A DNA stretch of 32,407 nt from Nitrospirota bacterium (GTDB lineage Bacteria > Nitrospirota > Nitrospiria > 2-01-FULL-66-17). Positions 13,078 to 26,233 of this stretch are shown one piece after another. Position 1 is the first letter of the stretch. Each line of letters begins with the position of its first letter. The notes under the pieces are model-generated. The model searched no databases. It had not been told where the DNA came from and worked only from the letters and a program-made list of their open reading frames with translations. The translations under genes were made by a program, and so were the position numbers. The stretch is from positions 1 through 32,407 of the forward strand of contig JBFLXB010000037.1 in NCBI GenBank assembly GCA_040757335.1, read 5' to 3'.

Positions 13078-13455
13078 ATGCCCCGGACCATTGGCCAGGT
13101 TGAAGCAGAGATCGCTGCCGCGCTCATCCAGTTTGAGAAGGACTTCTTGGGGCGTGGCCCCAAAGAGACGAAGGCGTACATCATCGACGACATGGTGCTG
13201 ATCCGGCTCAAAGGCGTGCTCACGCCGGCGGAACAGCAACTGGCGAAGAACGCGGAAGGGACCGAGCTCATCAAGCGCCTGCGATCGAACCTACTCGAAC
13301 AGGCCCGGGAGCTTCTGTCCGGGACCATCGAAAAGATCACAGGGTTGGGCGTCACCAGTCTCTACACCGACATCAGCACCAGGACCGGGGAGCGCATTAT
13401 CCTGTTCACGCTGACGGAGAATCTCTCGGAGCGGTTTCGAAACAACCTGGGTTGA
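13078..13455 (+). CDS. DUF2294 domain protein
   Basis: A 125-residue protein matching DUF2294: TIGQVEAEIAAALIQFEKDFLGRGPKE, DDMVLIRLKGVLTPAEQQLAK, then LRSNLLEQARELLSGTIEKITG and a conserved end TGERIILFTLTENLSERF. The family is widespread, small and soluble; its biochemical function is not known. The ATG at 13078 is used because the family starts near this point and the predicted promoter lies just before it. A clear terminator follows (13541-13574), so the gene is probably its own transcription unit although it sits directly upstream of the inorganic-carbon pump operon. Whether the two are functionally linked is open. Confidence 0.85.
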   Translation: MPRTIGQVEAEIAAALIQFEKDFLGRGPKETKAYIIDDMVLIRLKGVLTPAEQQLAKNAEGTELIKRLRSNLLEQARELLSGTIEKITGLGVTSLYTDISTRTGERIILFTLTENLSERFRNNLG

Positions 13456-13540
13456 CTTCGTGCCAGATCCTCGGCTTTAATTGAAAAAAAATTTCGGAAG
13501 ACAGCCTGAAGGATTCCCTACGGAATCGGTCGGACTGTAG

Positions 13541-13574
13541 GCCGACCCCCTTGATGCAGGCGGGTCGGCTTTTT
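13541..13574 (+). terminator. Intrinsic terminator after the DUF2294 gene
   Basis: An eight-pair GC-rich stem GCCGACCC/GGGTCGGC with a 13-base loop is followed directly by TTTTT. The right-arm sequence GGGTCGGC occurs again at 13628-13635, so the left arm could pair with either copy. Confidence 0.75.
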
Positions 13575-13632
13575 GTTGGCAAACAGGCTACGGGACAGCC
13601 GACACTGATCTGCGGCGGTCCCGTGGAGGGTC

Positions 13633-13670
13633 GGCCGGCACAGGTCCTTAGTGAAGGATCAATGCCGGCC
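13633..13670. promoter_or_regulatory. Nested inverted repeat in the dabB leader region
   Basis: GGCCGGCA (13633-13640) is a perfect inverted copy of TGCCGGCC (13663-13670), and inside it TCCTT (13645-13649) pairs with AAGGA (13654-13658). The structure ends 32 bases before the dabB start codon. It could be an operator for a dimeric regulator, or an RNA hairpin in the leader. Confidence 0.5.
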
Positions 13671-13702
13671 TTCGTATGTGTGGTCCAGTCGAGGGACGTT
13701 CG

Positions 13703-16297
13703 GTGTCGCACTACTACCCGCTGCTGATCCCCCTGGCGCCGCTTGTCGCGGCCCTGTTGACCGCTCTGCCCGGTGGCCTGATCACCGAGCGGAGCTATCG
13801 GATCGGGGCGGTGGCGCACCTCGTCGCGTTCGTCATGGCGGTCCTGCTGCTCTACCAGGTCGCTGCGCCGGAACAGGCCGCGATCCGTCTCTCCCTCTGG
13901 GCTTCGCCATGGAGTGGGGTGCCGTCGTTCGAACTGGCCATCGACCGGTTAGCCGCTGTCATGATGGTGCTGATCTCCGGGATCGGCTCGGTGCTCTATT
14001 ACTATTCGATCCGATACATGCAGCAGGAACGGGGGCGCGCCAGGTATCAGACGCTGTTGGCGCTCGCCATCGCGACGCTGCTTTTCATGGTCTCCAGCGC
14101 CAATCTGATGATGCTCTTCTTGTTCTGGCAACTCCTGAGCTGGCTCCTCTCGCTCCTGGCCCACAACTATGCGCACCCCCCCACGGTCCAGGGCGCGTTC
14201 AGGACGTTCATCATGCTGCGGGCAGGGGATGTGGCCTTTCTTGCGGGCATCGTGCTGGCCTATCACCTCTACGGGACCGTGGAGTTCTCGCAGCTGTTTG
14301 CCCGAGCAGCCGACGATCACACCACGTTGTCGCTCTGGTGGCCGGGCAGCGGACTCGAGATCAGCGGCGCCACCGCGGTGACGCTGTTGATCTTCATCGG
14401 GGCCATGAGCAAGTCGGCCCAGTTTCCGCTACACATGTGGCTGCCCGATTCGCTCTATGCGCCCACGCCGATCCATGCCTTGCTCCACGCAGGTATCATC
14501 AATGCCGGCGGATTTCTCTTGAATCGTCTGGCTCCGCTCTACGGCCTCAGCCCCCTGACCCTGCACGTCGTGTTCGCCGTGGGGCTGCTCACCGCGCTGC
14601 TGGGCGCCGCCATGATGCTCACCCAGAACGACATCAAGAAGACGCTCGGCTACTCCACGATCGGCCAGATGGGCTACATGATCATGGAGTGCGGGCTGGG
14701 GGCGTTTGCCCTCGCGGTGTTCCATCTCATCGCGCATGGTCTCTTCAAGGCCACGATCTTCCTCAACTGCGGCAACGTGATCCATGTGGCCCGCCAGGAG
14801 CCCAGGGTGCCTCATAGGATCGACGCGGGAGCACCAACGGACTTTTCAGGCGTCACGTGGGCGACCGGATTTCTCACGTCGCTCCTTCTCCCGCTAGTCA
14901 TTCTGTTGGCCGCGCACGGCGCTCTGCAGATTCCCTTATGGGATTCGCAGGGTGTGGTGATTTTCCTGTTCTTTAGTTGGGTGACCTCCTCCCAGGCGAT
15001 CCTGACGCTCTATCGCCTCCGCGCGATCGGCTCCTGGAAAGTGGCGGGGATCATGTTGCTGACGCTGGTGCTGGTGATGTCCACCTACCTGTTCGCGGCG
15101 GAGCGCTTCACTCATTTCCTCTATCCAGCGCCGGGCGAAGTGAGCGCCTACTTCCACGCCGCTGCTCTGCCGGTCTGGCTGTTCGACGGCATGATCGCGG
15201 CCACGGCGCTCTTCGTCACCATGGGTTGGATCGTGATCTACGCCAAGAGCCATGGTCGATCGATTCATCTGCCGGAATGGATCAGCGCAATACAGATCCG
15301 AAGTTATCTCGTTTTCATGAATCGTCTCTACTTGGATGGCCTCGCGCTCAGGCTCCGCCAAGGTTTCGGGCGGGCCATCAGTCGGCTCGATCGGAGCAGG
15401 GGGTTCCTGCTGGTGAGCGCGGTGATCGCCCTGGCCCTCGCCGCGGCGCGAATGGGAACCTCATCGACGATCGAACACGTCGCCTTTTTGTGTCTGTTCG
15501 CCTTCATGCTTCCGCTCTTTCCGGTGCATGGGTTCTATGTGGCCGCCCTGACCCGATTGCCGGGATACGCGTCCATCCTGTTGGCGATCGTCTTGCCGGT
15601 CGCGGGGCTTGGGGGCGTGGCTGGCTTGCTTTCCGAGCTGCCCGCGGAGCTGCTCAACGGCGTGAGCGTGTTGGCCGTGTTCGGCACCGTCTATGGATCG
15701 ATCAAGGCGCTGGCTCAGCAGCGGGTCGCCCGCCTGGTGGCTTACGGCGGGCTCTCGTTCTATTCCATGCTCTGGTGGCATTTGGCCGTTGCTCAGATCG
15801 CAACCCCCCAGGCGATCGTGTATGCCACTTCGGTGGCGCTGGTCACCGGCGGGTTGCTCGTCGCTTGGCGTGCGGTGCACACGCGTTACGGCGATCTGGC
15901 GCTCGGCCGGCTCGGCGGGCTGGCGCGACCCATGCCCCGGTTTGCCGTCCTGCTCGCGCTCTTGGTGATGGCGGCCGTGGGTCTACCCCCCTTCGGGATG
16001 TTTTCGGGTTACGTAGCCATGCTGCTCCACCCGTCGATGGCGCTTTCCCTCGGCATTTCCGTGGGGCTGACGATCATCTTGGTGGCCTGGTTCACCGCCT
16101 CGTGGTATTTGTTCGCCTTGATGCAGCGGGTGCTCTTCGGCCCGCACCGTTCGGATCTTCCGTTCGACGATCTGGGCCCAGCCGAGCTCGCCCCGCTGGT
16201 GCTGGTGCTGGTGCTTCTGCTGGTCCTGGGCATCGCCCCGCACCAACTGGTCGATTTCTTCGGCGCCAATACCCTCACGGCTTGGAACGCGCGGTGA
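13703..16297 (+). CDS. dabB: DabB-type proton-coupling subunit of the inorganic-carbon pump, two-module form
   Basis: An 864-residue polytopic membrane protein of the NuoL/MrpA antiporter superfamily, partner of DabA in energy-coupled CO2/bicarbonate uptake. The GTG at 13703 has GAGGG seven bases upstream. The first module (to about 560) is typical: MSKSAQFPLHMWLPDSLYAP, PTPIHALLHAGIINAGG, TQNDIKKTLGYSTIGQMGYM, HLIAHGLFKATIFL. In the helix holding the conserved Glu of NuoL, the sequence is LFLFWQLLSWLLSLL, with Gln at that place. Known DabB proteins are about 500-560 residues; here roughly 300 more follow that look like a NuoM-like half (LPLFPVHGFYVAALTRLPGY, ALAQQRVARLVAYGGLSFYSML, AAVGLPPFGMFSGYVAMLL) with expected channel lysines not evident. 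The gene overlaps dabA by four bases. Confidence 0.93.
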   Translation: MSHYYPLLIPLAPLVAALLTALPGGLITERSYRIGAVAHLVAFVMAVLLLYQVAAPEQAAIRLSLWASPWSGVPSFELAIDRLAAVMMVLISGIGSVLYYYSIRYMQQERGRARYQTLLALAIATLLFMVSSANLMMLFLFWQLLSWLLSLLAHNYAHPPTVQGAFRTFIMLRAGDVAFLAGIVLAYHLYGTVEFSQLFARAADDHTTLSLWWPGSGLEISGATAVTLLIFIGAMSKSAQFPLHMWLPDSLYAPTPIHALLHAGIINAGGFLLNRLAPLYGLSPLTLHVVFAVGLLTALLGAAMMLTQNDIKKTLGYSTIGQMGYMIMECGLGAFALAVFHLIAHGLFKATIFLNCGNVIHVARQEPRVPHRIDAGAPTDFSGVTWATGFLTSLLLPLVILLAAHGALQIPLWDSQGVVIFLFFSWVTSSQAILTLYRLRAIGSWKVAGIMLLTLVLVMSTYLFAAERFTHFLYPAPGEVSAYFHAAALPVWLFDGMIAATALFVTMGWIVIYAKSHGRSIHLPEWISAIQIRSYLVFMNRLYLDGLALRLRQGFGRAISRLDRSRGFLLVSAVIALALAAARMGTSSTIEHVAFLCLFAFMLPLFPVHGFYVAALTRLPGYASILLAIVLPVAGLGGVAGLLSELPAELLNGVSVLAVFGTVYGSIKALAQQRVARLVAYGGLSFYSMLWWHLAVAQIATPQAIVYATSVALVTGGLLVAWRAVHTRYGDLALGRLGGLARPMPRFAVLLALLVMAAVGLPPFGMFSGYVAMLLHPSMALSLGISVGLTIILVAWFTASWYLFALMQRVLFGPHRSDLPFDDLGPAELAPLVLVLVLLLVLGIAPHQLVDFFGANTLTAWNAR

Positions 16298-19200
16298 ACC
16301 CCGTGGAGCAGATCACGTCCTACAGCGATACTCAGCGGATGCAGCTCCGAGCCGTGATCCTACTCTCGAGCGAGATCATCGCTCCCTGCTGGCCCATGCG
16401 CACGTTCGTTCATCACAATCCGCTCCACGGGTTGGAGGAACTCCATTTCGAGGAGGCTGCGCAACGGGCTCAACAGGTGTTGGGAGGGAAGGGATTTCTG
16501 TCGCTTGAGCTGTTTCGCGACTATGCCCGTTCGGGCCGGATTCTTCCCCGGCACATTGACGCCGCGCTGAAGTCGCGTGTGCATGACAAGCAGGTCACGC
16601 TGGGAGATCACCAGATCACCGATTTCGACGTGCTGCGAGCCCAGCTGCTCCACGGTCTCTCGGCCCCTCCGGAAGACGTGCTCGACGCCATGATCGCCCG
16701 CCGTCCGGATCGAACCGTGATCACCGCGCTCGCGGATCACCTCTCCCGCGGCCTGGAACCGGCCAACGTGGAGGAGGCGCAGGGAGACGACGATCCGGCT
16801 GTTCTCGGCCGCCACGCCACCCTGGCGTCGTGGTGCGATCGCACGTTGGGGACCGACATCACGGCCGGGATCAACCGGGAAATGATCAAGTGGTGCGAAG
16901 CGTTCTTGGACGAAGCCCATGCGGCCTGGGCAATGCCCGGCCGGGAGAACGGTTTCTACGCGGCCTGGAGGTCGCTGGCCGCGCTGGAGTGGTCGCCCTG
17001 CGGCATCCCCCAGAGCCGCCGGAAGCTTGCCCGCTTGCCGGCCCATCCGGAAGATGCGCTGCTTGACCATCTGGCCGCGCTCGGCGTTCCGCCCGGCCTG
17101 TGGCAGGGCTATCTCGCGTTGCATTTCGCAGCCCTGCCCGGGTGGGCGGGCTTCATCAAATGGCGCGCGGATCAATCCGACTACGAGTGGCAACAGGCCC
17201 ATCCCATCGACCTGGTCCAGTACCTTGCCGCGCGCCTCTGGTACGAACGCGAGTTGGTGCAACAGGCCTGCCGGACGGAACTCGGAATCGATGGAAATGT
17301 CCAGGCGATCCGGGGCGCAGCGGCATCGAAGGACTCGCCGGAGACGGACCGCACCGGGCTCCGCCATCGATCATGGTCGTGGCGGCTCGTGGCGCTTGCG
17401 ACCGCGTTGGACCTCGCGCCCTCGAGTCTGATGGACACGGCGCCGGACACGCTCAAGACCGTGCTGAACTGGCAGGACAGCTTCCCGGAATCACGCCACG
17501 GGCCGGTATGGCTGAACGCGTTCGAAGCCGCCTATCAAGAACAGCTTCTGGCGACACTCCGGCCCAACCACTCCAAATCGCCCTCGGCGACACCGGTCCG
17601 TCCGCAATCACAGGCCGTGTTTTGTATCGACGTGCGCTCCGAATCGCTCCGGCGCCACCTCGAAGCCGTCGGCGACTACGGCACGTTCGGCTTCGCCGGC
17701 TTTTTCAGCGTCTTCATCCGGTACCAGGCCATGGGAAGTACTCACGACACCGATCAGTTTCCGGTGATCATGAAGGCCAAAAATACGGTGCGTGAAGTGC
17801 CCCGGATCTATCACAGCCAGCTGCTCTCGCGGCATCGGGCCGGGACCAAATTGCTGCACGCGGCCCATACGCTGCTGCACGATCTCAAAGAAAACGTCGT
17901 GACGCCCTATGTCATGGTGGAGTCCCTCGGCTGGTTCTACAGCCTGCCCCTGATCGGCAAGACGGTGTTCGCCTCCTGGTATCACACGTGGGCCGAGCGG
18001 CTGCGGCGCATCTTCGTGCCGCGGGTCTCCACCAGCCTGACCGTGGACAAGCTGTCGCGGGAGGAGGTCACCGAGATGCTGGCCGCCGAGCAGCGCGGGA
18101 TCATCCGCCGCGCCCTGCAGGAACGGTTCGGAGACCGCGATCTGAATCTGTCGCTCGAGCGCCTGGAATACCTGCGCAAACGGGCGTTGGACGAGAGCCA
18201 CGGCGGTGATCACGCACCGAAGGGATCGCTTTCCGCCGAGGAAGAGGGGGCCTTCATCCAGGTTTTGCGCGAGCAGTACCGCATCAACCCCGGCGGAGCC
18301 TTCGCACGCATGGAGCGCATCACGCGCATGGGTTTCACCCTCGCGGAGCAGGCTTTCACGGTAGAAACCGCACTCCGGATGATGGGGCTAACCGAGAATT
18401 TCTCCCGCCTGGTCCTCTTCTGCGGCCACGGCAGCACGTCGGAGAACAATCCGTTCGAGGCGGCTCTCGACTGCGGCGCGTGCGGCGGCAACACGGGGAA
18501 GCCGAACGCGCGCGTCCTGGCGATCATGGCCAACAAGGCGCCGGTGCGCGAGGCGCTGGCGAAGAACGGCCTCGTCATTCCCCAGGACACGTATTTCATC
18601 GCCGGCCAACACGACACCACCACGGACACGGTCGAGCTCTTCGATCTGGAAGACATCCCGCACACCCATCTCAACGACCTGTTGCGCTTGGATCGCGACC
18701 TGGCGGAGGCGGGCCGGCGGAACAGCCGGGAACGGTGCGGGCGATTCCCGGAGCTTCCGCCCGCGCTCTCGCCCGCAAAGGCCGGGCGTGAAGTCCGGCG
18801 GCGGAGCGGCGATTGGAGCCAGGTCCGGCCGGAGTGGGGACTGTCTGGCAATGCCGCCTTCATTATCGGGCGTCGGGCGCTGACCCAAGGCATCGATCTC
18901 GGAGGGCGGGCCTTTCTCCATTCGTACGACCATCGGGGGGACGCGACCGGCCGGTTGCTGGAGATCGTGATGACCGGGCCGCAAGTCGTGGGCCAATGGA
19001 TCAACATGGAGCACTATTTTTCGACGGTGGATACGGAGGTCTACGGCAGCGGCAGCAAGATCTACCACAACGTGGTGGGACGGTTCGGCATCATGTCTGG
19101 TCCCCAAAGCGATCTCCGCACCGGGCTGGCCTGGCAAACCGTCATGTCCGGGCCCCGGCCGTATCACGAGCCCATGCGGATGCTCACCGTGATCGAAGCG

Positions 19201-19383
19201 CCCCGGGAACGGATCCTCCAGATCATCCGGCGGCACCGTCTCCTTCGGCAGCTCTACGACAACGAGTGGGTCCGCCTGGTGGCGCTTGACCCGGACCACG
19301 AAAGTTTCTTTTACTACGTGCCGAGGCAGGGATGGACGCCGGTGCACGATGACGGCCCATCGCTTCGAACCGCCACCAATTGA
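16294..19383 (+). CDS. dabA: DabA (DUF2309), zinc-dependent CO2-hydrating subunit of the inorganic-carbon pump
   Basis: A 1029-residue soluble, membrane-associated protein of the DUF2309 (UPF0753) family, related to beta-carbonic anhydrases, which with DabB captures CO2 as bicarbonate. The N-terminus has the family signature MRTFVHHNPLHGLEEL. Expected zinc ligands are all present: Cys444 and Asp446 in FCIDVRSE, His712 in FCGHGSTSENNPFEAALDCG and Cys727, with the same 15-residue His-Cys spacing as the characterised Halothiobacillus protein. The conserved C-terminal part includes VVGRFGIMSGPQSDLRTGLAWQ (split here only for description). The GTG at 16294 overlaps the dabB stop (GTGA), implying coupled translation and stoichiometric assembly. 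The long frame open upstream of 16294 lies inside dabB and is a shadow. Confidence 0.96.
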   Translation: MNPVEQITSYSDTQRMQLRAVILLSSEIIAPCWPMRTFVHHNPLHGLEELHFEEAAQRAQQVLGGKGFLSLELFRDYARSGRILPRHIDAALKSRVHDKQVTLGDHQITDFDVLRAQLLHGLSAPPEDVLDAMIARRPDRTVITALADHLSRGLEPANVEEAQGDDDPAVLGRHATLASWCDRTLGTDITAGINREMIKWCEAFLDEAHAAWAMPGRENGFYAAWRSLAALEWSPCGIPQSRRKLARLPAHPEDALLDHLAALGVPPGLWQGYLALHFAALPGWAGFIKWRADQSDYEWQQAHPIDLVQYLAARLWYERELVQQACRTELGIDGNVQAIRGAAASKDSPETDRTGLRHRSWSWRLVALATALDLAPSSLMDTAPDTLKTVLNWQDSFPESRHGPVWLNAFEAAYQEQLLATLRPNHSKSPSATPVRPQSQAVFCIDVRSESLRRHLEAVGDYGTFGFAGFFSVFIRYQAMGSTHDTDQFPVIMKAKNTVREVPRIYHSQLLSRHRAGTKLLHAAHTLLHDLKENVVTPYVMVESLGWFYSLPLIGKTVFASWYHTWAERLRRIFVPRVSTSLTVDKLSREEVTEMLAAEQRGIIRRALQERFGDRDLNLSLERLEYLRKRALDESHGGDHAPKGSLSAEEEGAFIQVLREQYRINPGGAFARMERITRMGFTLAEQAFTVETALRMMGLTENFSRLVLFCGHGSTSENNPFEAALDCGACGGNTGKPNARVLAIMANKAPVREALAKNGLVIPQDTYFIAGQHDTTTDTVELFDLEDIPHTHLNDLLRLDRDLAEAGRRNSRERCGRFPELPPALSPAKAGREVRRRSGDWSQVRPEWGLSGNAAFIIGRRALTQGIDLGGRAFLHSYDHRGDATGRLLEIVMTGPQVVGQWINMEHYFSTVDTEVYGSGSKIYHNVVGRFGIMSGPQSDLRTGLAWQTVMSGPRPYHEPMRMLTVIEAPRERILQIIRRHRLLRQLYDNEWVRLVALDPDHESFFYYVPRQGWTPVHDDGPSLRTATN

Positions 19384-20456: not shown

Positions 20457-20497
20457 AAAAATACAAAAGGCCCGGGGGGAGTGTCCCCGGGCCTTTT
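20457..20497 (-). terminator. Intrinsic terminator of the cold-shock gene
   Basis: A perfect 13-pair stem AAAAGGCCCGGGG/CCCCGGGCCTTTT with a seven-base loop is followed on the minus strand by a T-rich tract (TTTTGTATTTTT). It lies 16 bases after the csp stop codon. Confidence 0.9.
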
Positions 20498-20512
20498 GAG
20501 TGCGCGCAATGG

Positions 20513-20713
20513 TTAGACTTTCACCACATTCGCTGCTTGGAGCCCCTTCGGCCCATTCACGACTTCAAATTCCACCTCTTGACCTTCGTCCAGAGACTTG
20601 AATCCGTCACCTTGAATGGCGGAAAAGTGCACGAAGACGTCTTTGCCCTCGTCTTGGGTAATGAACCCGTAGCCCTTGCTGCCGTTGAACCACTTCACTC
20701 GGCCTTTCGCCAT
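20513..20713 (-). CDS. Cold-shock domain protein (CspA family)
   Basis: A 66-residue single cold-shock domain that binds single-stranded RNA/DNA as an RNA chaperone. RNP1 is KGYGFITQ and RNP2 is [10 protein letters not shown], both intact; the end ANVVKV is typical. The ATG at 20713 follows a near-perfect GGAGGTGAT ribosome binding site at normal spacing. The frame stays open upstream to 20902, but that part is leader. A strong promoter (20870-20899) lies about 150 bases upstream, and a terminator-like hairpin (20787-20823) interrupts the leader; an independent terminator follows. The gene is thus monocistronic, with a long leader as is common for cold-regulated csp genes. Confidence 0.97.
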
Positions 20714-20786
20714 GTAACAATCACCTCCCTTCCACAGAATTCGGGACTGACCCCGTGGGTATCGATCGGAGGCGTGTTCCAAGGCG

Positions 20787-20823
20787 AAAAAAAACCGCAG
20801 CTCGTGCTTCAATGGCTGCGGTT
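20787..20823 (-). terminator. Terminator-like hairpin inside the csp leader (possible attenuator)
   Basis: On the minus strand AACCGCAG and CTGCGGTT form an eight-pair stem with a 15-base loop, followed by a run of eight T residues that partly overlaps the stem. It lies between the predicted csp promoter and its ribosome binding site, with no other minus-strand gene upstream for it to terminate. Confidence 0.6.
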
Positions 20824-24049: not shown

Positions 24050-26233
24050 ATGTACGACCGACTCGATCCTCGGTATTACCAGATCATGGCCCTGTCAGGG
24101 CTGTTGTTTTACGGCATCTGGGCGCTGTCGTTTGACGTTACCCCCTCGCGCGCAGCGCTCCTGATCACCACCGCGCTGGCCACCCAATGGGCCTGCACGC
24201 GCTTCTGGCGCCTGCCGGAATTCGACCCGCGGAGCGCGCTGATTTCCGCGCTCTCGCTCTGTCTGCTCCTGCGCACGAACGACGCGGTCCTGGCCGCGGC
24301 CGCCGCGGTGATCGCGATCGCAGGCAAATTTATCCTCCGAGTCAACGGCAAACACATTTTCAACCCCACCAATCTTGCCCTGGTCCTCATGTTGCTGCTC
24401 TCCGACCGAGTGTGGGTCTCATCGGGCCAATGGGGTCACGCGGCGTTTTTCGCGTTCTTGATGACGTGTGCGGGTGGGCTGGTGGTCCACCGGGCGTTGC
24501 GCAGCGACGTCACGCTCGCGTTTCTGGGCGCCTATGCCGGCCTGGTGGTCGGACGCGCGTTCTGGCTGGGTCAGCCGCTCGCCGTGCCCCTGCACATGTT
24601 CGAGAACGGCGCGCTGCTGCTCTTTGCCTTCTTCATGATTTCCGACCCCAAAACCACGCCGGACTCGCGGTTGGGCCGCGTGGTCTTCGCCGTGGTCGTC
24701 GCGCTAGGAGCCGGCCTCGTTCAGTTCGTCCTGTATCGCCCCAACGGCCTGTTGTGGTCGCTTGGAACCGTGTCGATCTTCACGCCGCTCATCGACCGAT
24801 TCCTGCCGGCCAGGCGGTACCACTGGAGCGGGAGAGAGGTTCTCGTACCGTTGATCGGCCGATTTGCGGCAATCGTTCACCGAAAGGAGCACACGATGAT
24901 CCGATCCCTCGTCCGTTTGTCTCTGTGCAGTCTGTTCCTGTTGGGATGGGCTGCTTCGGCTTCGGCCTTTTGCGGTTTCTACGTGGCCAAGGCCGATACC
25001 AAGATCTTCAACAAGGCTTCGCAGGTGGTTCTCGCGCGCCTTGAAGATAAAACGGTCATGACTATGGCCAACGACTTCAAAGGTGATCCCACGGAGTTCG
25101 CGGTGGTGGTCCCGGTGCCGACCGTCCTTGCGAAGGACCAGATCCATGTGGGAGATCAAGCCGTGGTCGATCACCTCGACGCGTATTCGGCCCCGCGACT
25201 GGTGGAGTACTACGACGAGAACCCGTGCGCGCGGGTCGACAAGAACGCCGCGGCCCCGCTGGGTTCCGGGACCGTCTTCGAGGCCGCACCCGGCCGGCGA
25301 CAGAAATCGGAGGCCCTGGGGGTGAAAATCGAAGCCCGCTACACCGTAGGTGAGTATGACATCTTGATCCTGTCGGCCACGCAGAGCCACGGATTGGAGA
25401 CGTGGCTGCGCGAAAACGGCTACCGGGTTCCGCCGGGTGCGTCGCGTGTGCTCGGGAGCTACCTCAAACAGGGTATGAAGTTCTTCGTGGCCAAGGTCAA
25501 CCTCTCCGAGCAGGAGCGCCTGGGGTACCAGCACCTCCGGCCGATCCAGGTGGCGTACGAGTCGCCCAAATTCATGCTGCCGATTCGGCTGGGCATGGTC
25601 AACGCGGATGGGGCCCAAGAGCTCTTCGTGTACACGCTGACCCAGCGAGGGCGGGTCGAAGCCACCAACTATCGGACCGTGAAGCTCCCCTCGAACGCCG
25701 AAATCCCGATCTACGTGAAGAACGAGTTTTCACCGTTCTACCAGGCCCTGTTCGCTCACCAAACCGAGAAAGAGCGCGGTTCCGTCGTGTTTGTCGAATA
25801 CGCCTGGGACATGGGCTGGTGCGATCCCTGCGCAGCCGATCCGCTCTCGCGCGATGAGCTCAAACGTCTCGGCGTGTTTTGGCTCGTCGACGGGCCGACC
25901 GGAGCCTTCCGCGGCCCGGCACCTGCCGCCAACGTCTTCCTCACCCGGCTCCACGTGCGTTACGATGCCGCGAGTTTTCCCGAAGATTTGGTCTTTCAGG
26001 AAACGGCTGACCGGACCAATTTCCAGGTCCGGTACGTTCAACGCCACGCGTGGACTGGCGAGGCGTCCTGTCCCGAAGTCGTCTCGTATCGTCGCACCCT
26101 GGCTGAACGGCGCGAGCGCGAGGCTCAGACGTTGGCCTCACTGACCGGGTGGGCGTTGGACGAGATTCGCGCCAAGATGGAGCTGGACGCGCCGCCATCG
26201 ATCCGGCCGTGGTACAAGAAGCTCTGGGAGTAG
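24050..26233 (+). CDS. RnfD/NqrB-like membrane domain fused in frame to a secreted DUF2330 domain
   Basis: One uninterrupted frame of 727 residues that reads as two proteins. Residues 1-282 are an integral membrane domain of the RnfD/NqrB family, with GKHIFNPTNLALVLMLL (100-116) and FMISDPKTTPDSRLG; I do not see the SGAT-type flavinylation motif of full RnfD. From residue 283 a fresh signal peptide (MIRSLVRLSLCSLFLLGWA then ASASA) leads into DUF2330: FCGFYVAKADTKIFNKASQVV, FKGDPTEFAVVVPVPTV, MLPIRLGMVNADGAQEL, GWCDPCAADPLS. DUF2330 proteins are exported and of unknown function. A ribosome binding site precedes Met283, so the second part can probably be made alone. Elsewhere the parts are expected as separate neighbouring genes; here the stop codon between them is absent. 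Confidence 0.75.
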   Translation: MYDRLDPRYYQIMALSGLLFYGIWALSFDVTPSRAALLITTALATQWACTRFWRLPEFDPRSALISALSLCLLLRTNDAVLAAAAAVIAIAGKFILRVNGKHIFNPTNLALVLMLLLSDRVWVSSGQWGHAAFFAFLMTCAGGLVVHRALRSDVTLAFLGAYAGLVVGRAFWLGQPLAVPLHMFENGALLLFAFFMISDPKTTPDSRLGRVVFAVVVALGAGLVQFVLYRPNGLLWSLGTVSIFTPLIDRFLPARRYHWSGREVLVPLIGRFAAIVHRKEHTMIRSLVRLSLCSLFLLGWAASASAFCGFYVAKADTKIFNKASQVVLARLEDKTVMTMANDFKGDPTEFAVVVPVPTVLAKDQIHVGDQAVVDHLDAYSAPRLVEYYDENPCARVDKNAAAPLGSGTVFEAAPGRRQKSEALGVKIEARYTVGEYDILILSATQSHGLETWLRENGYRVPPGASRVLGSYLKQGMKFFVAKVNLSEQERLGYQHLRPIQVAYESPKFMLPIRLGMVNADGAQELFVYTLTQRGRVEATNYRTVKLPSNAEIPIYVKNEFSPFYQALFAHQTEKERGSVVFVEYAWDMGWCDPCAADPLSRDELKRLGVFWLVDGPTGAFRGPAPAANVFLTRLHVRYDAASFPEDLVFQETADRTNFQVRYVQRHAWTGEASCPEVVSYRRTLAERREREAQTLASLTGWALDEIRAKMELDAPPSIRPWYKKLWE
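24885..24898 (+). promoter_or_regulatory. Internal ribosome binding site and start codon for a separate DUF2330 protein
   Basis: AGGAG (24885-24889) lies six bases before ATG at 24896, followed by a textbook signal peptide. This would give a 445-residue secreted DUF2330 protein (24896-26233) independent of the upstream membrane domain. Confidence 0.6.

What the first reader, a model, noticed from the sequence alone, without database searches (positions are those of the whole stretch)
13703..16297. DabB about 300 residues longer than usual: NuoL-like plus degenerate NuoM-like module
Described DabB proteins have a single antiporter-like module. Here a second region with a NuoM-like order of motifs follows, apparently without the usual channel lysines, and the first module has Gln where NuoL has its conserved Glu. 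This would change proton coupling or give a built-in second subunit of the pump.
Basis: partly seen in the sequence, partly recalled or inferred. Interest (0 to 1): 0.65.

Follow-up and report, generated by a model that had tools for sequence, protein, structure and literature searches.

The report
DabB fused to a gutted NuoM-like subunit
A bacterial CO2-uptake membrane protein (DabB) carries an extra half-antiporter at its end that has lost every proton-carrying residue; it is the fused form of a separate third subunit found in relatives, including the unexplained small third subunit of the DAB1 system of Halothiobacillus, so it links an orphan protein to complex I.

Summary
ORF 13703-16297 (864 aa, GTG start) is a complete DabB followed by a NuoM-like half (about residues 575-864, TM7-14). 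It lies between mpsC and a zinc-ligand-complete dabA. The modelled C-part matches NuoM/ND4 folds (pLDDT 83, TM 0.73-0.80). All NuoM proton-relay residues are gone. The Glu-to-Gln change in the first module is no innovation: no DabB examined has Glu there, and the DabB channel residues are intact apart from Ser256 to His.

The module is neither unique nor a new pump. In Nitrospira (including Ca. N. defluvii) and two Nitrosomonas it is a separate ~435 aa gene between dabB and dabA. Gammaproteobacterial DAB1 operons have a ~250 aa gene there. [quoted passage not shown] pairwise 33% identity, E 2e-10). Fused forms make one clade, so the fusion probably happened once.

Best reading: a non-conducting, NuoM-derived accessory subunit of DAB1-type vectorial carbonic anhydrases, fused here to DabB, probably docking on DabB as NuoM docks on NuoL. 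Homology is well supported; docking and function are inferred.

The parts
13078..13455 (+). mpsC-like gene (125 aa)
   Evidence: PF10057 MpsC, E 2.2e-38; coordinates
13539..13671 (+). leader between mpsC and dabB: GC-rich hairpin with T-run (13539-13571, terminator- or attenuator-like) and a second long stem-loop (about 13632-13671)
   Evidence: RNA fold -109.7 kcal/mol, z -4.7 for 13500-13720; no Rfam match; not recognised by the simple terminator scan
13703..15370 (+). DabB module (residues 1-556, NuoL-like, proton-channel residues conserved)
15371..16297 (+). fused C-terminal NuoM-derived module (residues 557-864, TM7-14 half, no proton-relay residues); homologue of the separate third subunit of DAB1-type operons
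16294..19383 (+). dabA, long type (1029 aa, GTG start overlapping the dabB stop)
   Evidence: PF10070 916 bits; Zn-ligand motifs FCIDVRS, CGHGS, DCGAC and the Leu658-equivalent present

Best explanation
The window encodes a DAB1-type vectorial carbonic anhydrase, mpsC-dabB-dabA. DabB carries, as a C-terminal fusion, an accessory subunit that in most relatives is a separate gene between dabB and dabA. That subunit descends from a NuoM-like antiporter and has been gutted: all residues that relay protons in NuoM are replaced by non-titratable ones and a new conserved Lys/Arg has appeared. In this lineage and in gammaproteobacteria only the C-terminal half (TM7-14) remains. Most likely protons flow, as in DAB2, through the DabB half-channel and the DabA finger to drive CO2 hydration. 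The module conducts nothing; it docks beside the DabB TM5/6 face, as NuoM docks on NuoL, to stabilise or hold DabB and the long-type DabA in the coupled state. Shown: homology, gene order, residue loss, single fused clade, purifying selection. Inferred: docking site, scaffold role, proton path.
For: Gene order dabB - module - dabA, with the module as a separate ~435 aa gene, occurs in most class relatives. In H. neapolitanus DAB1 the 248 aa middle gene (Hneap_0908) matches the module profile (52 bits) and the window module directly (33% over 102 aa, E 2e-10); profile-profile probability is 99.1% over 243 columns. Separate, fused and gamma forms make one clade (100/100) apart from NuoM, NuoN and other DAB-linked antiporters. 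A K/R in KALAQ is present in 50 of 50 module rows and absent from NuoM (0 of 7). NuoM relay residues are kept in 34 of 35 NuoM cells and lost in all but one of 250 module cells. Fused DabBs are one clade, SH-aLRT 99, with split forms outside. Module dN/dS is about 0.30. The fold is NuoM-like. In complex I, E407 of NuoM, R175 of NuoL and E144 of NuoL meet at the M-L interface (PMC13324432); the retained NuoM half is the one that bears E407, and both acids are gone here.
Against: No complex model exists; the full-length AlphaFold model was poor (pLDDT 57), so docking is untested. Two Nitrospira-family genomes have DabA and DabB but no module anywhere (G010, G041), so the module is not needed by every long-DabA system. 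The gamma branch is very long (2.75 changes per column), so its exact place among the split forms is unsure, although synteny and the shared basic residue agree. Module dN/dS is about 2.5 times that of the DabB part.
Confidence: 0.7

Rival explanations
1. The second module adds a second proton route or changes the H+/HCO3- stoichiometry, as more antiporter subunits do in complex I (first reader; COGNAT also speculated that the number of membrane subunits sets the number of ions).
For: NuoM-type fold; other DAB operons do carry several antiporter subunits that keep Lys/Glu (clade C rows; PMC5700660).
Against: All NuoM relay residues are replaced in fused, split and gamma forms; half of the fold (TM1-6) is missing in the fused and gamma forms.
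Confidence: 0.07
2. The module lines part of a conduit with the DabA finger or DabB, for example a hydrophobic CO2 path or part of the periplasmic half-channel, rather than being a passive scaffold; the conserved Lys/Arg would pair with an acid of DabA or DabB.
For: New fully conserved K/R inside the module (50/50); DabA finger acid apparently conserved as Asp/Glu; DabB2 lacks a NuoL-like TM9-13 bundle and borrows the DabA finger for its half-channel (PMC13144422).
Against: No structural evidence; DAB2 works without the module; some Nitrospira DABs lack it.
Confidence: 0.15
3. The tail is a neutral relic of a fused gene, kept by chance.
For: The module evolves faster than the DabB part (68% against 86% identity between the window and L071) and has been truncated.
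Against: dN/dS about 0.30, well below 1; 24 invariant columns across 24 sequences of separate and fused forms; an ORF of this kind is present in 22 of 22 gamma DAB1-type operons examined plus H. neapolitanus.
Confidence: 0.07
4. The long ORF is an assembly or frameshift artefact joining two genes.
For: Neighbouring lineages do have two genes.
Against: Fused ORFs of 864-928 aa in at least ten independent assemblies, one clade, all lacking the same N-terminal stretch of the module.
Confidence: 0.01

Closest known systems
DAB1 of Halothiobacillus neapolitanus (DabA1 Hneap_0907, Hneap_0908, DabB1 Hneap_0909)
   Same: Same gene order, long DabA, NuoL-like DabB, and a homologous third membrane component
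   Different: The third component is a separate 248 aa protein with no Pfam or NCBIfam annotation; in the window it is fused to DabB and a MpsC gene lies upstream
Nitrospira-type dabB - NuoM-like - dabA operons (for example Ca. Nitrospira defluvii FP929003.1)
   Same: Closest relatives; same residues lost, same order, mpsC nearby
   Different: Module is a separate ~435 aa protein that keeps part of the N-terminal half
DAB2 of H. neapolitanus (PDB 9rd0)
   Same: DabA active-site motifs and DabB channel residues conserved
   Different: Two subunits only, short DabA (827 aa), no module
NuoM / ND4 / NdhD antiporter subunit of complex I
   Same: Fold and sequence ancestry
   Different: Only half of the fold, no proton-relay residues, separate clade
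Multi-antiporter DAB operons (COGNAT clade C, dabA upstream of nuoL/nuoM homologues)
   Same: DabA associated with several antiporter-like subunits (PMC5700660; loci L199-L213)
   Different: Those extra subunits are full length and mostly keep Lys/Glu; they group with NuoM, not with this module

Membership tests
DAB / vectorial carbonic anhydrase complex (DabA-DabB) | DabA with PF10070 and beta-CA-like Zn ligands (C, D, H, C) plus Leu in place of the CA Gln/His | tested here: met
   PF10070 916 bits; FCIDVRS, CGHGS, DCGAC and WGLSGN motifs aligned to DabA2
DAB / vectorial carbonic anhydrase complex (DabA-DabB) | DabB with the channel residues shown to matter in DabB2 (S256, H260, K310, S316, H339, H343, K347) and the K235/D185/R182 set | tested here: met
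   All present except Ser256, which is His258 in the window and the Nitrospira clade
DAB / vectorial carbonic anhydrase complex (DabA-DabB) | Acidic residue at the tip of the DabA finger (Glu444) | tested here: inconclusive
   Asp in LLHDLKEN at the ungapped equivalent position; the HMMER alignment is gapped there
DAB / vectorial carbonic anhydrase complex (DabA-DabB) | CO2-uptake activity coupled to proton motive force | not testable with these tools
   needs complementation of a carbonic-anhydrase mutant
DAB1-type three-component DAB | Third membrane component homologous to Hneap_0908, encoded between dabB and dabA | tested here: met
   Homology shown; here fused to DabB rather than separate
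NuoM-type proton-pumping antiporter subunit | NuoM-like fold | tested here: met
   AF2 model pLDDT 83; best PDB matches NuoM/ND4/NdhD, TM 0.73-0.80 by query length; only the TM7-14 half is present
NuoM-type proton-pumping antiporter subunit | Relay residues K234, K265, H322, H348, E407 | tested here: not met
   M, V, F, V, Y in the window; lost across all 50 module rows with one His exception
NuoM-type proton-pumping antiporter subunit | Above the curated cut-off of TIGR01972 (NuoM) | tested here: not met
   94.5 bits for the module against a cut-off of 263.8

The most novel reading that the evidence does not exclude
DAB1-type carbonic anhydrases contain a third subunit that is a gutted, half-length NuoM which has kept only the half that contacts NuoL in complex I. 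It has been truncated to the same half independently in gammaproteobacteria and in the Nitrospirota fused lineage, and it acts as an essential non-conducting clamp that sets the coupled state of DabB and the long-type DabA.
Probability: 0.4. Interest if true: 0.7.

Novelty: new variant of a known kind. Interest (0 to 1): 0.55.

Why it matters
It gives an identity to an orphan subunit of a carbon-concentrating system. Hneap_0908 is called a small hypothetical transmembrane protein (PMC13144422) and matches no Pfam or NCBIfam family here, yet it is homologous to a NuoM-derived module that this lineage fuses to DabB. That makes the role of the third DAB1 subunit directly testable, shows that an L-like and an M-like subunit occur together in a carbonic-anhydrase machine (as NdhF3 and NdhD3 do in cyanobacterial NDH-1MS, from general knowledge), and supplies a case of an antiporter subunit kept under selection after losing its ion path.

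Tried and rejected
Full-length AlphaFold of the 864 aa protein (20 sequences) gave pLDDT 57 and pTM 0.49, so the placing of the module on DabB could not be read from it. A second-proton-path reading was rejected on residues. A pseudogene tail was rejected on dN/dS. An assembly artefact was rejected because the fusion recurs in many assemblies and forms one clade. The idea that Gln143 is special was rejected: no DabB sampled has Glu there. Equating the module with the extra antiporters of COGNAT clade C was rejected by the tree and residues. One residue map (K265 at module residue 63) was mis-indexed and corrected (residue 77). The original DAB report (Nat Microbiol 2019) is not held, so phenotypes of Hneap_0908 mutants could not be read.

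Full report
OBSERVATION. The long ORF is as described: GTG 13703 to stop 16297, 864 aa (873 from an in-frame ATG at 13676). It lies about 250 bases after an mpsC-like gene (PF10057), and its stop codon overlaps the start of dabA (GTGA). DabA has PF10070 at 916 bits and the Zn-ligand motifs and Leu658-equivalent of DabA2. The first 556 residues are a complete DabB. Its best solved relative by profile is DabB2 (PDB 9rd0_B, E 2.7e-99), and all residues that were shown to matter in DabB2 (PMC13144422) are present except Ser256, which is His258 here and in the Nitrospira DabBs. The last ~290 residues match only the second half of NuoM (TIGR01972 positions 205-476, E 5.9e-27).

FOLD. AlphaFold2 on residues 557-864, with 24 aligned relatives, gave pLDDT 83.4 and pTM 0.82. 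Foldseek against the PDB returned almost only antiporter-like subunits, led by NuoM/ND4/NdhD (E about 1e-8, TM 0.73-0.80 by query length). The full-length model failed (pLDDT 57), so relative placement is unknown.

RESIDUES. NuoM moves protons through K265 via H348 and H322 to E407, gated by the K234-E144 pair (PMC13324432). In a 245-column alignment with NuoM of related genomes as control, these positions are K/K/H/H/E in NuoM (one Leu at H348 among seven rows). They are non-titratable in all 50 module rows except one His. In the window they are M602, V633, F686, V711 and Y770. A Lys/Arg at window K668 (KALAQ) is present in 50 of 50 module rows and in no NuoM row. The Glu144 position of NuoL is Gln, His or Ile in all 21 DabBs aligned; the DAB2 paper already reports Ile151 there.

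DISTRIBUTION. Among 58 relatives of the window genome and 80 loci found by scanning GTDB genomes with the module profile, most module-bearing operons have three genes: dabB (~570 aa), a NuoM-like gene (~435 aa), dabA. Examples are Ca. Nitrospira defluvii (FP929003.1), Nitrosomonas nitrosa Nm90 and Nitrosomonas sp. Nm51. Fused forms of 864-928 aa occur in the window's family and a few other families of the class (G001, G007, G011, G012, G036, G042; partial in G008, G048) and in MAGs labelled Deltaproteobacteria, Ca. Scalindua, Leptospirillum and Manganitrophaceae (L073, L074, L076, L077). The DabB tree puts all 11 fused rows in one clade (SH-aLRT 99) beside the Nitrospira split clade, with split forms also outside. 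One fusion, with loss of the N-terminal stretch of the module, is the simplest history. The module tree alone does not resolve this.

THE DAB1 THIRD SUBUNIT. In 369 gammaproteobacterial genomes, 83 have DabA. Of the 40 loci read, 22 have a DAB1-type DabB of 554-589 aa followed by DabA of ~1040 aa. In 21 of them the ORF between the two (247-298 aa) matches the module profile at 37-87 bits, at profile positions ~160-407; the 22nd (L207) has an ORF of similar size and look that did not reach the threshold. I located H. neapolitanus itself by 100% identity to the solved DabA2 (G442). Its DAB1 locus reads DabB1 559 aa, a 248 aa protein, DabA1 1046 aa; its DAB2 locus has no middle gene. [quoted passage not shown] It has no Pfam or NCBIfam hit. 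It matches the module profile (52 bits) and the window module directly (33% over 102 aa, E 2e-10 for a single comparison). Profile against profile gives 99.1% probability over 243 columns, and the gamma profile hits one PDB sequence, a NuoM (E 1.4e-6). In the tree, gamma, separate and fused modules form one clade (100/100) apart from NuoM, NuoN and the clade C antiporters, with long branches as a caveat.

MECHANISM. Shown: homology, synteny, loss of the proton relay, purifying selection on the module (dN/dS about 0.30 against 0.12 for the DabB part), one fused clade. Inferred: in complex I, R175 of NuoL bridges between E407 of NuoM and E144 of NuoL (PMC13324432). The half of NuoM kept in the fused and gamma forms is the half that bears E407, and both acids of that contact are gone while DabB keeps R173 and the K237/D176 pair. 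The module therefore most likely docks on DabB as NuoM docks on NuoL without passing protons to it. The proton path would be that of DAB2: the DabB half-channel and the DabA finger. The role would be structural: holding DabB and the long-type DabA, or fixing DabB in its open state. Two genomes with DabA and DabB but no module (G010, G041) show that it is not universally required.

NOVELTY. DabB, DabA, MpsC and multi-antiporter DAB operons are known (PMC13144422, PMC5700660). I found no paper in the held library that identifies the third DAB1 subunit as a NuoM-derived half or describes the fusion; subscription papers, including the original DAB report, could not be read. I rate it a new variant of a known kind.

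Noticed in passing
window 13500-13702: Very stable leader before dabB (z -4.7): a GCCGACC/GGTCGGC hairpin followed by TTTTTG and a second long stem-loop ending near 13671; no Rfam family. Possibly an attenuator or terminator between mpsC and dabB.
   Followed up: partly
window residue His258 of DabB (13703 frame); L035, L069, L070, L034, L041: Ser256 of DabB2, needed for activity, is His in the window and Nitrospira DabBs (PIHALLHAG instead of PVSALLHAG): an extra titratable residue in the proton channel.
   Followed up: partly
L033, L034, L035, L068, L069, L070: Several Nitrospira operons carry two tandem DabB genes plus the NuoM-like gene and DabA; the first DabB copies sampled form their own clade.
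   Followed up: partly
L199-L202, L208-L213: Gammaproteobacterial operons in which dabA is flanked by up to three full-length antiporter subunits that mostly keep the Lys/Glu residues (COGNAT clade C type).
   Followed up: partly
window 24050-26233: A 727 aa ORF joins an NQR2/RnfD/RnfE-like membrane domain (PF03116) to DUF2330 (PF10092), an unusual combination.
   Followed up: no
window 20463-20820, minus strand: Rfam cspA thermoregulator match just above the gathering score (79.1 against 78).
   Followed up: no
window 14977-16293: The dabA frame stays open for about 440 codons upstream across dabB; a GC-rich overlapping frame, probably not coding.
   Followed up: no
L073, L074: Fused DabB also appears in MAGs labelled Deltaproteobacteria/Myxococcota and Ca. 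Scalindua, either gene transfer or binning error.
   Followed up: no
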